From positions 1 to 58,354 of the forward strand of contig CACZAH010000005.1 of assembly GCA_902779035.1 (NCBI GenBank): 58,354 bases of DNA, read 5' to 3'. Both the position numbers and the translations under genes were made by a program. Position 1 is the stretch's first letter. Each line of letters begins with the position of its first letter. Shown here piece after piece: positions 41,607 through 47,729 of the stretch. The notes under the pieces were generated by a model that was given only the letters and a program-made list of their open reading frames with translations, did no database searches and was not told where the DNA came from. The DNA comes from an uncultured Erysipelotrichaceae bacterium. Lineage in GTDB: Bacteria > Bacillota_I > Bacilli_A > RF39 > UBA660.

Positions 41607-42500
41607 TCATGCCGAGATTTCAGATTTAGAAAGTATTATAACTGGACGAACTTTGCCACCTAAATTGACATCATTGTAGGTCAAACGCCCATCATATACC
41701 ATATACCAAACTCTATTTGATGATCCGTTATATGAACTCATTGTCCAATATTGCAAACCATTATATAACCAATTTGGAACATTCTCACCTTTTGAATAAC
41801 TTGTTTCTGAATTTTTTATATATCCCAAATTTATTAGATCTTCTACCGTTATTAAGCGAACTTCTTCAGTTTCTGGTGCATTAACTACTTTCCAAGCATC
41901 TAATGTAGTTTTAATGTATGAACCATCATATTCGTTACTATTTGAATGATACATCATATTTCCAACTCCACCTCCAATCACATCAGCTCCAGGTGAATAC
42001 TCTATAATTTCATCAGAACTCAATGGCTCTTTTTTTAACAACTTAACATTCAATTGTTTAGAATCACTATTCTCTATTACATAATAATCAACACCATTAT
42101 ATGTTACTTCATCTCCTACTGAATATGTATCATATGTTACAACTTGTAATTTTCCATACTCATAATCACCTGTACTTCTTCCAGCAACAGTACATCCAGT
42201 TAAGTATACAGAGGAATCACTGTTTAACTGTGTAGTTTCACATACTACTTCATTACCACTATATTCAATTGTAAGTTGATCTATTGATGTTGGAAACCTT
42301 CCTGTATCTAGTAAATATGAAGCTATTGCTAGTTCTATAGATCTACCATATGCATCTACACTACGTCTATCTGCAGATATTCTAGCTTTTCTTATTATGT
42401 TCATTACAAGTGGAGTAACTATTAAAGCGATAATTGCCATTATTACTAATACTGCTATTAACTCTATCAGAGTAAAAGCATTTCTTTTTCTTTTAAACAT
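41607..42500 (-). CDS. pilin-like surface protein with C-terminal sensory/lectin-like domain
   Basis: The 297-residue protein starts KRKRNAFTLIELIAVLVIMA, a prepilin signal (cleavage before FTLIE) and the hydrophobic helix of type IV pilins/pseudopilins. After a linker, the C-terminal domain (about 125-297) contains VGDEVTYNGVDYYVI, then YWTMSSYNGSSNRVW...GGKVRPVIIL. This is a Trp/Gly-rich end reminiscent of C-type-lectin or FGE-like folds used for display and binding. It is the intact paralogue of 8420-9294. No pilus assembly genes lie nearby. SD GAAGGT. It lies 33 bases from the IS4-like element. Confidence 0.82.
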   Translation of the reverse strand: MFKRKRNAFTLIELIAVLVIMAIIALIVTPLVMNIIRKARISADRRSVDAYGRSIELAIASYLLDTGRFPTSIDQLTIEYSGNEVVCETTQLNSDSSVYLTGCTVAGRSTGDYEYGKLQVVTYDTYSVGDEVTYNGVDYYVIENSDSKQLNVKLLKKEPLSSDEIIEYSPGADVIGGGVGNMMYHSNSNEYDGSYIKTTLDAWKVVNAPETEEVRLITVEDLINLGYIKNSETSYSKGENVPNWLYNGLQYWTMSSYNGSSNRVWYMVYDGRLTYNDVNLGGKVRPVIILSKSEISA

Positions 42501-42540
42501 AAATTACCTTCTTTCTTATAATTTCATGGATTCTATTTTT

Positions 42541-42651
42541 AGTGTATACCATGATTACACTTTTATACACTCTACAATACTATCTTTCATCACCTTACCT
42601 TCTGATATTAGTTTACTAAAAAAAAAAAAAAAAGTCAACCCTATTTTGAAA
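42541..42651 (-). promoter_or_regulatory. conserved upstream element of pilin-like gene, copy B, with 16-base A run
   Basis: The same three blocks as at 9394-9487 occur: inverted repeat AGTGTA-9 bases-TACACT (42541-42561), TCACCTTACCTTCT (42590-42603) and GTCAACCC with TATTTTGAAAA (42634-42651). Between the last two is an uninterrupted run of 16 A (42618-42633). Read on the minus strand, TTGACT directly precedes this T run, and TAAACT follows at 17 bases. Confidence 0.5.
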
Positions 42652-42688
42652 ATTTGTTAACTTTTACAATTATCTTACCTAATTGTTA

Positions 42689-42716
42689 TTGACACATGTA
42701 TTATACGTGTTAAAAT
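42689..42716 (+). promoter_or_regulatory. promoter of small-peptide unit 1
   Basis: TTGACA (42689-42694) and TAAAAT (42711-42716), spacing 16. The predicted transcript begins at GGATATG, 42725. Confidence 0.7.
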
Positions 42717-42813
42717 ATTTATTCGGATATGTTTGAATTTCAGATGTTTTCCTTTCGTAAAAACAATTTGGCTTATGAAACAGTGGGTTTTGGTTACGAA
42801 AGGATGTGGTAGT

Positions 42814-42885
42814 ATGACTAAGAGAGAATTACGATTAGTAATAATCATTTTAGTTCTAATTATCATAATAATTTTAAGTAATTAG
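42814..42885 (+). CDS. 23-residue hydrophobic peptide, candidate type I toxin (unit 1)
   Basis: The peptide MTKRELRLVIIILVLIIIIILSN has a basic N-terminus and a single hydrophobic helix, the usual form of membrane-acting type I toxins. Its ribosome site AAGG is inside a perfect 10-base inverted repeat, CCTTTCGTAA (42751-42760) with TTACGAAAGG (42794-42803), which would hide it. The mRNA 5' end GGATATGTTTGA (42725-42736) can pair with TCAAACGTATCC (42955-42966) at the 3' end, and TTTCAGATGTTTTCC (42738-42752) with GGAAACGTCTGA (42935-42946). I recognise no named toxin family. A second, diverged unit follows. Confidence 0.7.
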   Translation: MTKRELRLVIIILVLIIIIILSN

Positions 42886-42966
42886 AAAAAACATCTGAAA
42901 CATTATAAGCCTGTTTCAGATGTCCCCACGTTAGGGAAACGTCTGACAACCACTTCAAACGTATCC
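42886..42966 (-). ncRNA. candidate antisense RNA of unit 1
   Basis: On the minus strand a TATAAT lies just upstream of the start GGATACG (complement of 42960-42966). The RNA would run about 80 bases to a near-ideal terminator: ACATCTGAAAC-loop-GTTTCAGATGT followed by TTTTTT (complement of 42885-42923). It would be fully complementary to the 3' part of the peptide mRNA. The -35 is poor (TGTATA at 17 bases) but is conserved in both units. Confidence 0.6.
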
Positions 42967-43073
42967 TTTTTTATTATATGAAGCATTGCTTCCTATATAC
43001 ATAATATCACAAAAATTAGATTTGTGCAAATAGAACTTGGAAAAAAATATTTAATTTTATTACATTAATTTAG

Positions 43074-43103
43074 TTGCACCATTCATCTATTTTGTGTTAT
43101 AAT
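43074..43103 (+). promoter_or_regulatory. promoter of small-peptide unit 2
   Basis: TTGCAC (43074-43079) and TATAAT (43098-43103), spacing 18. Transcription would begin at GGATACG, 43110. Confidence 0.7.
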
Positions 43104-43189
43104 GTACCCGGATACGTTTGAAATTCAGATGCTTCCTCCTATTATTATCAGGGGACTTTGGTCTAATCTTAATATATAGGAGGTACAAT

Positions 43190-43285
43190 ATGAAAAATAC
43201 TACCAGAGAAAAATTTCTGTGTGTTTTTATATTTCTATTATTAGTGATAATTATATTACTTGTAATAGTACTTATCAAAAGATAA
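43190..43285 (+). CDS. 31-residue hydrophobic peptide, candidate type I toxin (unit 2)
   Basis: The peptide opens MKNTTREKFLCVFIF and continues as one hydrophobic helix ending LIVIVLIKR-like with basic residues. It is preceded by a perfect AGGAGG (43178-43183), which is masked by CCTCCTAT (43135-43142) pairing with ATAGGAGG (43176-43183). As in unit 1, the mRNA 5' end GGATACGTTTGA (43110-43121) is perfectly complementary to its 3' end TCAAACGTATCC (43363-43374). ATTCAGATGCTTCC (43123-43136) pairs with GGAAGCGTCTGA. The peptide sequence differs from unit 1 while the RNA architecture is kept. Confidence 0.7.
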   Translation: MKNTTREKFLCVFIFLLLVIIILLVIVLIKR

Positions 43286-43374
43286 GCAAAGGCATCTGAT
43301 TCAACTATGTTGTTTCAGATGCCAACCACAAATTTAAATTGAGGAAGCGTCTGATTAACACATCAAACGTATCC
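43276..43374 (-). ncRNA. candidate antisense RNA of unit 2
   Basis: The same minus-strand TATAAT context as in unit 1 precedes GGATACG. A hairpin GGCATCTGA...TCAGATGCC (43291-43323) would end the RNA, followed on the minus strand by a weaker T-rich tract (TTTGCTTATCTTTT). It overlaps the 3' end of the peptide mRNA. Confidence 0.5.
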
Positions 43375-43467
43375 TTTTTTTATTATATGAAGCATTGCTT
43401 CCTATATACATAATATCACAAAATTTAGATTTGTGCAAATGAGTATCCAAAAATCCTGAATTTGATT

Positions 43468-43710
43468 TTATATCATTTTATCAATGTTCTTTGGTACTTT
43501 ATCATTTACTACCGCACTAATTATTTTATCTTCTTGCTCTTTAGTTACATTTCTACCTGTTACTTTAGATAATGTTTGTATTACCTCTCGAAGACTACCT
43601 TCATTTTTTAAGTCTGTTTCTTGTAACTTTTTAGCAAGTCCTAAAATAGTTTCCTTATTTACATTAGTTTTCTTTTCTACTCTATCAAAAAATCTATTAG
43701 AAAAAGCCAT
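43468..43710 (-). CDS. spoVIF: stage VI sporulation protein F
   Basis: The 80-residue protein matches the SpoVIF (YjcC) family over its full length: FFDRVEKKTNVNKETILGLA, then LREVIQTLSKVTGRNVTKEQ and IISAVVNDKVPKNID. In Bacillus SpoVIF is needed for proper spore coat assembly and GerE-dependent late gene expression in the mother cell. It has its own SD (GGAGGG) and lies beside the small-peptide units. Confidence 0.85.
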   Translation of the reverse strand: MAFSNRFFDRVEKKTNVNKETILGLAKKLQETDLKNEGSLREVIQTLSKVTGRNVTKEQEDKIISAVVNDKVPKNIDKMI

Positions 43711-46538: not shown

Positions 46539-47729
46539 TTAGTTTTGTTTTTTTTTAAATATTTTCAACATAGATAAACAAAATTTTCTTATTATGTTAA
46601 GGTTTTTCTGTGTATTTTCAACAAAACAAGTATTTTTGTCTTCTTGAAATACTGTGTCTAAATAAAAATGCAATTGATTCTCGATACACCACTCATTTCG
46701 TATTCCACTGCTAAGTATTTCAATTTCCTTAGAATCAATATTCGATATAAAGTATCTAGTATCAGTTTTTGTTTCGTTATTTTCTACATAAGTTCTTTTT
46801 GCAATTCCAATCGATTTTAATTTAAGCCATTTTTCCTTGTTAGGTAGCCAATCTATGTCGTTTATAAAAATATATTCTGTTTTTTCAACAGTTCCATGTG
46901 CTTTTTCTACAACTAATTTATAAGATTCTTTTTTTGCTTCATTATATAATTTGTTATCACTAAAATATTCTACAAGATTATTTTCTAATGCCTCCTGATT
47001 ACCTTTAACAGGAGCAATATAGTATCCTTCGTTTCCAGCAATATAATCGATAGTATCTTTTTGAGTGCTTAAAGCATCAAAAGTAACTAAAGTATTTTTA
47101 ACATTTACTCGTTTAAGTAATTCTGGACCAGTTAGTATTTCATTTGTCTTATCACCAATAAATTCAGTAGCTTCACAATTACCGTTTTTTACTGAAACAA
47201 TACTCATTGCGTTCATTTTAGATACTTTACCATTTTTCGATGATTTCCTATCAGAAGAATTGGCTATTTTACCATCCATTGGCTTAATATCTTCAATTAT
47301 TAAATCACCATTTTGATATAATGGTGCATTATTCTTTAAGAAATTATTCATTACCTTTACGCATAACTGCTCTAAGTCAGCAGGTTTTATATATGAAATA
47401 ACTCTTCTTAATGTTGATATAGATGGCATTCCATTATCGAAATATATATGTCTATCAAGCCAGTTAAAATGTTTACACATAAACAAATATATCTCTGTAA
47501 ATCTATTGCAGTTTGCCATCATAGCAAAAATTAATGTAAGAATAATATTTTCTAAAGAGTGCATTATATGTTCTTCGTCTCTTTTATCCACAACATAAAT
47601 AGCATTTGCTTCAATTTCATATATTAATTCACAGCAAACATTAATATTTTCTATTTCATTTTCATTAATTATATATTTATCAGAAATAATACTTGATAAT
47701 TTATCAAGGACTTTAGATTTTCTAGACAT
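46539..47729 (-). CDS. ISAs1-family transposase
   Basis: The 396-residue protein shows ISAs1/H-repeat features: SISTLRRVISYI, then the first catalytic Asp region KPMDGKIANSSDRK, VTFDALSTQKDTIDYIAGN (second Asp) and NEWCIENQLHFYLDTVFQED with the DDE glutamate. It appears full length and unbroken. It lies inside clear inverted repeats with intact target duplication, so it may still be active. SD GAAGGT. Confidence 0.9.
   Translation of the reverse strand: MSRKSKVLDKLSSIISDKYIINENEIENINVCCELIYEIEANAIYVVDKRDEEHIMHSLENIILTLIFAMMANCNRFTEIYLFMCKHFNWLDRHIYFDNGMPSISTLRRVISYIKPADLEQLCVKVMNNFLKNNAPLYQNGDLIIEDIKPMDGKIANSSDRKSSKNGKVSKMNAMSIVSVKNGNCEATEFIGDKTNEILTGPELLKRVNVKNTLVTFDALSTQKDTIDYIAGNEGYYIAPVKGNQEALENNLVEYFSDNKLYNEAKKESYKLVVEKAHGTVEKTEYIFINDIDWLPNKEKWLKLKSIGIAKRTYVENNETKTDTRYFISNIDSKEIEILSSGIRNEWCIENQLHFYLDTVFQEDKNTCFVENTQKNLNIIRKFCLSMLKIFKKKQN

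What the first reader, a model, noticed from the sequence alone, without database searches (positions are those of the whole stretch)
42738..42946. Alternative pairing within each small-peptide mRNA
The same octamer recurs in each unit. TTCAGATG in the 5' arm can pair with CATCTGAA in the inner hairpin or with CGTCTGA in the 3' arm, and the inner hairpin's right arm repeats TTCAGATG. So the mRNA can switch between a locked full-length form and a form with a free 5' arm, for instance co-transcriptionally or after 3' trimming. Such switching is known for Hok-type mRNAs.
Basis: partly seen in the sequence, partly recalled or inferred. Interest (0 to 1): 0.7.

Follow-up and report, generated by a model that had tools for sequence, protein, structure and literature searches.

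The report
Toxin–antisense RNA pair with pairing key
Two neighbouring tiny genes look like self-locking messages for membrane peptides, each paired with an opposing RNA that probably silences it; one short word repeated through the message drives the folding, and related copies have swapped that word everywhere at once.

Summary
The mRNA's predicted first bases pair with its last bases; the octamer pairs with the 3' arm (best supported) or the inner hairpin (weaker). The 3' arm can instead form a local, terminator-like hairpin.

The family is widespread in one family of uncultured gut Bacilli. In 113 aligned units, 5'–3' pairs co-vary. In other copies the octamer is replaced by other words in all partners at once: real partners pair better than almost every re-assortment (first or second of 5,040). 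The antisense promoter, 5' hairpin and terminator are conserved. None of 68 toxin genes lacks the antisense part; about 20 of 143 antisense units have lost the toxin.

Not supported: 3' trimming as the switch. The ribosome site stays hidden in every truncation folded except some 5' cuts. No RNA or toxicity data exist here. No Rfam, Pfam or NCBIfam match: a new variant of a known kind.

The parts
42689..42716 (+). Unit 1 mRNA promoter: TTGACA, 16 nt, TAAAAT
   Evidence: 11 of 12 matches. In the family the -10 ends 6 nt before GGATAC in 86 of 111 copies, so the mRNA probably starts at the closing arm.
42725..42736 (+). Unit 1, 5' closing arm GGATATGTTTGA (helix H1, 5' side)
   Evidence: Pairs with 42955-42966; fold; co-variation.
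42739..42747 (+). Unit 1 key word TTCAGATG(T), 5' copy
   Evidence: Pairs with 42939-42946 (H2) or with 42891-42899 (H6).
42750..42760 (+). Unit 1 anti-Shine-Dalgarno strand TCCTTTCGTAA
   Evidence: Paired to the Shine-Dalgarno site.
42799..42804 (+). Unit 1 Shine-Dalgarno site AAAGGA, sequestered
42814..42885 (+). Unit 1 peptide, 23 aa, MTKRELRLVIIILVLIIIIILSN; putative membrane toxin
   Evidence: Sequence; the 25-codon members of the family show codon-position entropy 0.59/0.31/0.87; no Pfam, NCBIfam, PADLOC or PHROG family.
42886..42923 (-). Unit 1 antisense terminator: the inner hairpin read on the - strand, then six U
   Evidence: (I19); A-run before the hairpin 0.77 A against 0.40 upstream in 113 units.
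42891..42923 (+). Unit 1 inner hairpin ACATCTGAAACA...TGTTTCAGATGT on the mRNA (H3)
42939..42946 (+). Unit 1, 3' key element B' (ACGTCTGA)
   Evidence: Pairs with the 5' key (H2) or with C' (H4).
42955..42972 (+). Unit 1, 3' closing arm C' TCAAACGTATCC and T6
   Evidence: local hairpin H4.
42886..42994 (-). Unit 1 predicted convergent antisense RNA, about 109 nt, overlapping the mRNA 3' region up to the toxin stop codon
   Evidence: Predicted from promoter and terminator; fold (z -5.2).
42980..42992 (-). Unit 1 antisense 5' hairpin GAAGC(AAT)GCTTC (H8)
   Evidence: 44 stem/loop variants among 113 units; GAAA loop on the - strand in 57.
43001..43030 (-). Unit 1 antisense promoter: TTTGCA, 18 nt, TATTAT, with extended -10 TG
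   Evidence: 109 of 109 family copies score 9.5 or more, against 26% of shuffles.
43074..43103 (+). Unit 2 mRNA promoter: TTGCAC, 18 nt, TATAAT, with extended -10
   Evidence: Sequence; family pattern.
43110..43131 (+). Unit 2, 5' closing arm GGATACGTTTGA and key TTCAGATG
43178..43183 (+). Unit 2 Shine-Dalgarno site AGGAGG, sequestered by the upstream CCTCCTATT strand
43190..43285 (+). Unit 2 peptide, 31 aa, MKNTTREKFLCVFIFLLLVIIILLVIVLIKR; putative membrane toxin
   Evidence: Sequence; without a family.
43291..43323 (+). Unit 2 inner hairpin; on the - strand an antisense terminator-like hairpin, here with a short T-run only
   Evidence: (I14).
43348..43381 (+). Unit 2 B' CGTCTGAT, C' ATCAAACGTATCC and T7
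43288..43403 (-). Unit 2 predicted antisense RNA (3' end approximate)
   Evidence: z -5.0; promoter at 43439-43410.

Best explanation
Each unit is a type I toxin–antitoxin module of a family not matched in the libraries searched. One promoter makes a short mRNA for a one-helix membrane peptide; a second, convergent promoter makes an antisense RNA that ends at the toxin stop codon and covers the mRNA's 3' region. Shown by sequence comparison: the mRNA's start can pair with its end (H1, H2) and these pairs co-vary; the ribosome site is complementary to an adjacent strand; the key word recurs in the 5' arm, both arms of the inner hairpin and the 3' arm; the antisense promoter, 5' hairpin and terminator are conserved. 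Inferred: during transcription the local form (5' hairpin, ribosome-site hairpin, inner hairpin, 3' terminator hairpin H4) forms first and helps termination; the ends then pair and lock the mRNA. The antisense RNA binds the 3' half completely, and its key copies also match the 5' key, so it can open or capture the mRNA and mark it for decay. Loss of the antisense RNA would let the stable mRNA be activated by a step not identified here.
For: Family-wide conservation of both transcription units: 109 of 109 antisense promoters score 9.5 or more against 26% of shuffles, extended -10 TG in 104; mRNA -10 at a fixed 6 nt from GGATAC in 86 of 111. Antisense 5' hairpin varied in sequence but kept, GAAA loop on the antisense strand in 57 of 113. 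Co-variation H1 AT78/GC27/GT8 with no mismatch, H2 CG50/TA44 in 113; tree-aware co-changes H2 8 against 2.2, P 0.0007; H4 P 0.003; H1 P 0.02. Whole-word replacement in key classes A, A', A'', B-E with the same fold; cognate partners best or second of 5,040 re-assortments. Toxin never without antisense unit (0 of 68), while 5 of 30 genuine 3' ends are solo and 2 have toxin pseudogenes (classed partly by eye), and 20 of 143 distinct 3' ends are solo in the larger set (by eye). Codon-position entropy 0.59/0.31/0.87.
Against: No transcript, toxicity or probing data. The unit 2 antisense terminator has only a short T-run. The ribosome site stays hidden in nearly all truncations, so the activation step is unknown. 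The gain from end pairing varies widely (-18.9 to -0.4 kcal/mol, mean -8.2). H4 has a C·A mismatch in 67 of 113 units on the mRNA strand. Solo antisense units could be plain decay in which the toxin half goes first. The tree tests rest on a short element and are uncorrected for 16 comparisons.
Confidence: 0.82

Rival explanations
1. A Hok/AapA-like mRNA in which trimming of the 3' end alone converts an inert mRNA into a translatable one.
For: End-to-end pairing dominates the full-length fold; octamer:inner pairing rises from 0.08 to 0.40 when the 3' arm is removed; AapA3 works so (PMC6733600, working-model section read).
Against: The ribosome site is no more open after 3' trimming (0.13, 0.02 against 0.14), and over 3' ends in six representatives at most 0.48.
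Confidence: 0.2
2. A small regulated membrane peptide that is not toxic; the antisense RNA only tunes its level.
For: No toxicity data; one-helix peptides can have other roles.
Against: One-sided loss: 0 of 68 toxins lack the antisense unit, whereas solo antisense units and toxin pseudogenes are common.
Confidence: 0.12
3. A small non-autonomous mobile element (MITE) whose terminal inverted repeats are the closing arms.
For: Several copies per genome, inverted ends, tandem copies.
Against: Compensatory change of inner words, wobble pairs mostly of the mRNA-strand kind in H1 and H2 (G·U 30 and 94 against A·C 7 and 16, summed), fixed promoter spacing, coding selection. A link to the transposase about 3.2 kb away was not tested.
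Confidence: 0.04
4. The octamer network is shaped by antisense binding only; the octamer:inner-hairpin pairing inside the mRNA does not occur.
For: The antisense RNA holds the same complement; compare DRa/DRb of par pAD1 (PMC4147584, passages). The intramolecular pairing is minor in the full-length fold (0.08).
Against: Cannot be separated from the intramolecular pairing by co-variation; trimmed forms are predicted to use the intramolecular pairing (0.40).
Confidence: 0.4

Closest known systems
par pAD1 (Fst / RNA II)
   Same: Convergent RNAs overlapping at their 3' ends, a shared terminator, repeats through which the antisense blocks the ribosome on the toxin mRNA (PMC4147584, passages).
   Different: No sequence match of the toxin to a family model; here the toxin mRNA has its own end-to-end lock and the repeat is one exchangeable word.
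AapA3 / IsoA3 of Helicobacter pylori
   Same: 5'-3' long-distance pairing of the full-length toxin mRNA, ribosome site hidden, competing hairpins (PMC6733600, working-model section).
   Different: 3' trimming does not open the ribosome site in silico; the antisense here covers the 3' half up to the stop codon.
hok / sok of plasmid R1
   Same: Structured inert mRNA, short membrane toxin, processing idea (PMC4147584, passages).
   Different: No leader peptide like mok was identified; the antisense covers the 3' end rather than the 5' leader.
TxpA/RatA, BsrG/SR4 and the C. difficile pairs
   Same: Gram-positive, convergent, 3' overlap (SR4 about 120 nt: PMC4147584, passages; C. difficile: PMC6563280, section 2).
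   Different: Shorter peptide without sequence match; a repeated key word and its wholesale replacement were not described in the passages read.

Membership tests
Type I toxin-antitoxin system | Short hydrophobic peptide gene under selection as protein | tested here: met
   22-31 aa, one hydrophobic stretch; codon-position entropy 0.59/0.31/0.87 over 145 genes.
Type I toxin-antitoxin system | Antisense RNA transcribed against the toxin mRNA | tested here: inconclusive
   Promoter, hairpin and terminator conserved; no transcript seen.
Type I toxin-antitoxin system | Peptide toxic, antisense neutralises | not testable with these tools
   Indirect only: 0 of 68 toxins without antisense unit.
hok/sok | Full-length mRNA locked by 5'-3' pairing | tested here: met
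   By prediction and co-variation only.
hok/sok | 3' processing opens the message | tested here: not met
   In silico, the ribosome site stays paired.
hok/sok | Sequence homology of toxin to the Hok family | tested here: not met
   No Pfam or NCBIfam match for the peptides given.
AapA/IsoA | End-to-end pairing, plus competing hairpins around the ribosome site | tested here: inconclusive
   Lock predicted; competing local hairpins predicted, but the ribosome-site hairpin is present in both states.
par pAD1 Fst/Ldr | Convergent RNAs with repeats that connect antisense to the 5' region | tested here: inconclusive
   Layout and repeats present; antisense RNA not shown.
par pAD1 Fst/Ldr | Fst/Ldr peptide family | tested here: not met
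   No Pfam or NCBIfam match.
MITE | Terminal inverted repeats with target-site duplication | not tested
   Inverted ends exist; duplications were not searched.

The most novel reading that the evidence does not exclude
A superfamily of toxin–antisense modules built round one exchangeable word. The word, used in the 5' arm, both arms of the inner hairpin and the 3' arm, sets both the mRNA's own lock and its recognition by the antisense RNA. When it changes, all copies change, so paralogues in one genome carry different keys for nearly the same toxin and escape cross-silencing. Solo antisense units left behind would act as anti-addiction elements against incoming copies with the same key.
Probability: 0.35. 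Interest if true: 0.8.

Novelty: new variant of a known kind. Interest (0 to 1): 0.62.

Why it matters
If right, uncultured gut Bacilli carry an undescribed family of RNA-controlled toxins in which a natural series of whole-word substitutions tests, without an experiment, which parts of a toxin mRNA pair with which. It would make two open questions directly testable: how paralogous type I modules avoid silencing each other, and whether orphan antisense RNAs protect a genome from new copies.

Tried and rejected
Rfam, whole window at gathering score: only a tRNA; region at permissive E: five chance-level matches. Terminator scan on 42500-43600: none found; I take this to be because its loop limit of 3-8 excludes these hairpins. 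Phages and plasmids, blastn: no match; viral contigs with the class A 3' pattern: 0.

Rejected numbers: a gain of -38.5 kcal/mol for end pairing came, I believe, from a wrong use of hard constraints; the value used is. In alignment A1, 1 of 42 rows (L041) was in the wrong orientation; the 113-row alignment uses the right one. One search gave 117 units, of which 4 (wrong length or empty) were dropped. One search used 90 of those 113 (others not parsed by motif). The classing of 26 copies without a 5' arm into 20 solo, 3 at an end of the held sequence and 3 with a degenerate arm is by eye. The 7 of 68 toxins without a strict 3' motif were judged by eye to have it. One search made 30 loci for 42 hits, and one search examined those 30. 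One own-genome 3' hit (C15:24293) was judged by eye not to be a unit.

Considered and set aside: a mobile element; the 50-aa ORF 42733-42885 (TTG start) as the real gene, because conservation starts at the ATG behind a Shine-Dalgarno site.

Full report
What is there. The window is contig C5 of a 1.19-Mb genome in 51 contigs. Between a prepilin-like gene (41607-42500, -) and a SpoVIF gene (43468-43710, -) lie two tandem units. Each has a promoter, a 5' arm, a hidden Shine-Dalgarno site, a 23- or 31-codon hydrophobic reading frame, an inner hairpin and a 3' arm ending in a T-run. Both mRNAs fold far better than shuffles (z -8.7, -10.9).

Copies. A 21-nt 5' pattern finds 6 copies in the genome at 5 places, and a seventh copy on C28 has a changed 5' arm; C23 holds a 5'-truncated one. 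In 60 relatives 30 had a match to the 3' arm with up to 2 mismatches (some matches there are chance, as in other families of the class). A toxin-codon pattern matched 56 of 291 genomes of the family, 58 of 241 in a draw from the order (all rows shown as the same family), and in the class 9 of 38 genomes of this family but 0 of 258 of other families. A generic 3' pattern gave 14 of 23 genomes of this family and 0 of 14 others (one of the 14, G020, is a chance match by eye). The bacterium is probably one of the RF39-like gut Bacilli; that name is my inference and comes from no call.

Pairing. In 113 aligned units the closing helix H1 has a pair AT78/GC27/GT8 with no mismatch. The key:3'-arm helix H2 has a pair CG50/TA44/CA16 with 3 others. 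The local 3' hairpin H4 has AT85/GC20/AC7/GT1, but another of its pairs is C·A in 67. The key:inner-hairpin helix H6 has CG49/TA39/CA17/TG6 with 2 others. Most of the octamer hardly varies and is uninformative. On a tree built without these columns, co-changes were H2 8.0 against 2.2 expected (P 0.0007), H4 2.5 against 0.4 (0.003), H1 3.1 against 0.7 (0.02), H6 4.0 against 1.4 (0.03); 16 column pairs were tested without correction. Summed over, wobble pairs in H1 and H2 are G·U 30 and 94 against A·C 7 and 16 in mRNA sense, as expected for pairing on that strand; H4 is mixed (53 against 74).

Key classes. Among 177 toxin reading frames in all loci (a few of them chance matches), 145 carry CATCTGA after the stop codon. 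Others keep the layout with other words: TCAGGTGC, TCAAGTGC, GCGTTAGGTGCA, GATTAGGTGC, TTGGGTGATT, TTTAGGTAC in the 5' arm, each matched by the inner hairpin and the 3' arm. All 12 representatives keep the closing helix and inner hairpin in their predicted folds, with composition-shuffle z from -8.0 to -12.6. With one representative per class (7), the sum of duplex energies of true partners is reached or beaten by 2 (H1), 2 (H2) and 1 (H6) of 5,040 permutations, the true arrangement included. The representatives and segment borders were chosen by me, and related classes (A', B, C) share GGTGC, so non-cognate energies are not zero. Genomes G009, G026 and G188 hold class A and B together, G068 holds C and A', and G017 holds two toxin kinds side by side.

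Antisense unit. Downstream of each copy an extended -10 promoter faces back: score 9.5 or more in 109 of 109 against 26% of shuffles, TG in 104, and 9.5 or more in 17 of 20 solo copies. The predicted RNA starts with a hairpin whose stem varies (44 stem/loop variants) and whose loop is GAAA on the antisense strand in 57 of 113. It ends at the inner hairpin followed by U's: A fraction 0.77 in the 7 nt before the hairpin on the mRNA strand, 0.40 further up. The window's two antisense RNAs fold with z -5.2 and -5.0; the terminator of unit 2 has a short T-run.

Toxin and antitoxin asymmetry. Of 68 toxin frames with at least 150 nt downstream, 61 show a strict 3' end and the other 7 show it by eye. 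From the 3' side, 31 distinct ends in 30 loci (of 42 hits) comprise 22 toxins called by script, 1 more by eye, 2 toxin pseudogenes, 5 solo units and 1 chance match. In the larger set, 143 distinct 3' ends comprise 117 with a 5' arm (one of them an empty artefact), 20 solo, 3 at a sequence end and 3 with a degenerate arm (by eye). About 8 of the 117 have a broken frame (by eye). The 3' pattern used cannot see units without a 3' end; two searches were made to meet that bias.

Does it switch? The full-length fold is the locked one: H1 0.97, H2 0.91, H4 0.01, H6 0.08 (90 units). When the 5' arm is removed H4 rises to 0.89; when the 3' arm is removed H6 rises to 0.40. End-to-end pairing is worth -14.6 and -12.4 kcal/mol in the two window units and -8.2 on average (-18.9 to -0.4, 113 units). 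Without it, the two window units fold with a small 5' hairpin and the local 3' hairpin. So two forms are credible. In neither is the ribosome site open, nor after 3' trimming. Cutting the 5' end beyond the anti-Shine-Dalgarno strand opens it in part (up to 0.65 in unit 1 and 0.61 in unit 2, but not in the other four representatives).

What is known. The AapA3 paper describes 5'-3' long-distance pairing, transient hairpins and activation by 3' truncation (PMC6733600: outline and working-model section). par pAD1 has converging RNAs, a shared terminator and repeats DRa/DRb; SR4 overlaps its target by about 120 nt at the 3' ends; hok mRNA needs 3' cleavage (PMC4147584: passages). C. difficile has convergent pairs, and mostly only cognate antitoxins work (PMC6563280: outline and section 2). 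My searches (listings and abstract starts only) showed no type I system described for RF39 or similar uncultured Bacilli. A 2025 paper says type I systems were known in Proteobacteria, Firmicutes and Tenericutes (PMC12390103: passages).

Judgement. A type I toxin–antitoxin family, no member of a named family among those tested, with a combination (convergent antisense, end-to-end lock, one exchangeable key word) that I did not find described.

Noticed in passing
113-unit alignment, B' element (RCATY), e.g. 42939-42943: Two positions of the 3' key element change together 14 times on the tree against 3.2 expected (ACATC or GCATT). Both keep the key:3'-arm helix about equally strong; perhaps a balance between H2 and H4.
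   Followed up: partly
L330, L334, L320, L331, L323, L336, L347: Three further peptide kinds (starting MKKRTFI or MKTRTFI, MNKKDFL or MSKKDLL, MRKKDEY or MRKSEKY) sit on the same 3' and antisense layout with other key words.
   Followed up: partly
L017, L034, L042, L156 downstream flank: In several copies an inverted repeat overlaps the -35 region of the antisense promoter (seen by eye in the listings); possible operator or terminator.
   Followed up: no
41607-42500 and L062: A prepilin-like gene lies beside the window units; a solo antisense copy on C23 of the same genome lies beside a similar-looking gene start (by eye), which suggests a shared duplication.
   Followed up: no
46539-47729 (-): DDE transposase gene about 3.2 kb from unit 2.
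   Followed up: no
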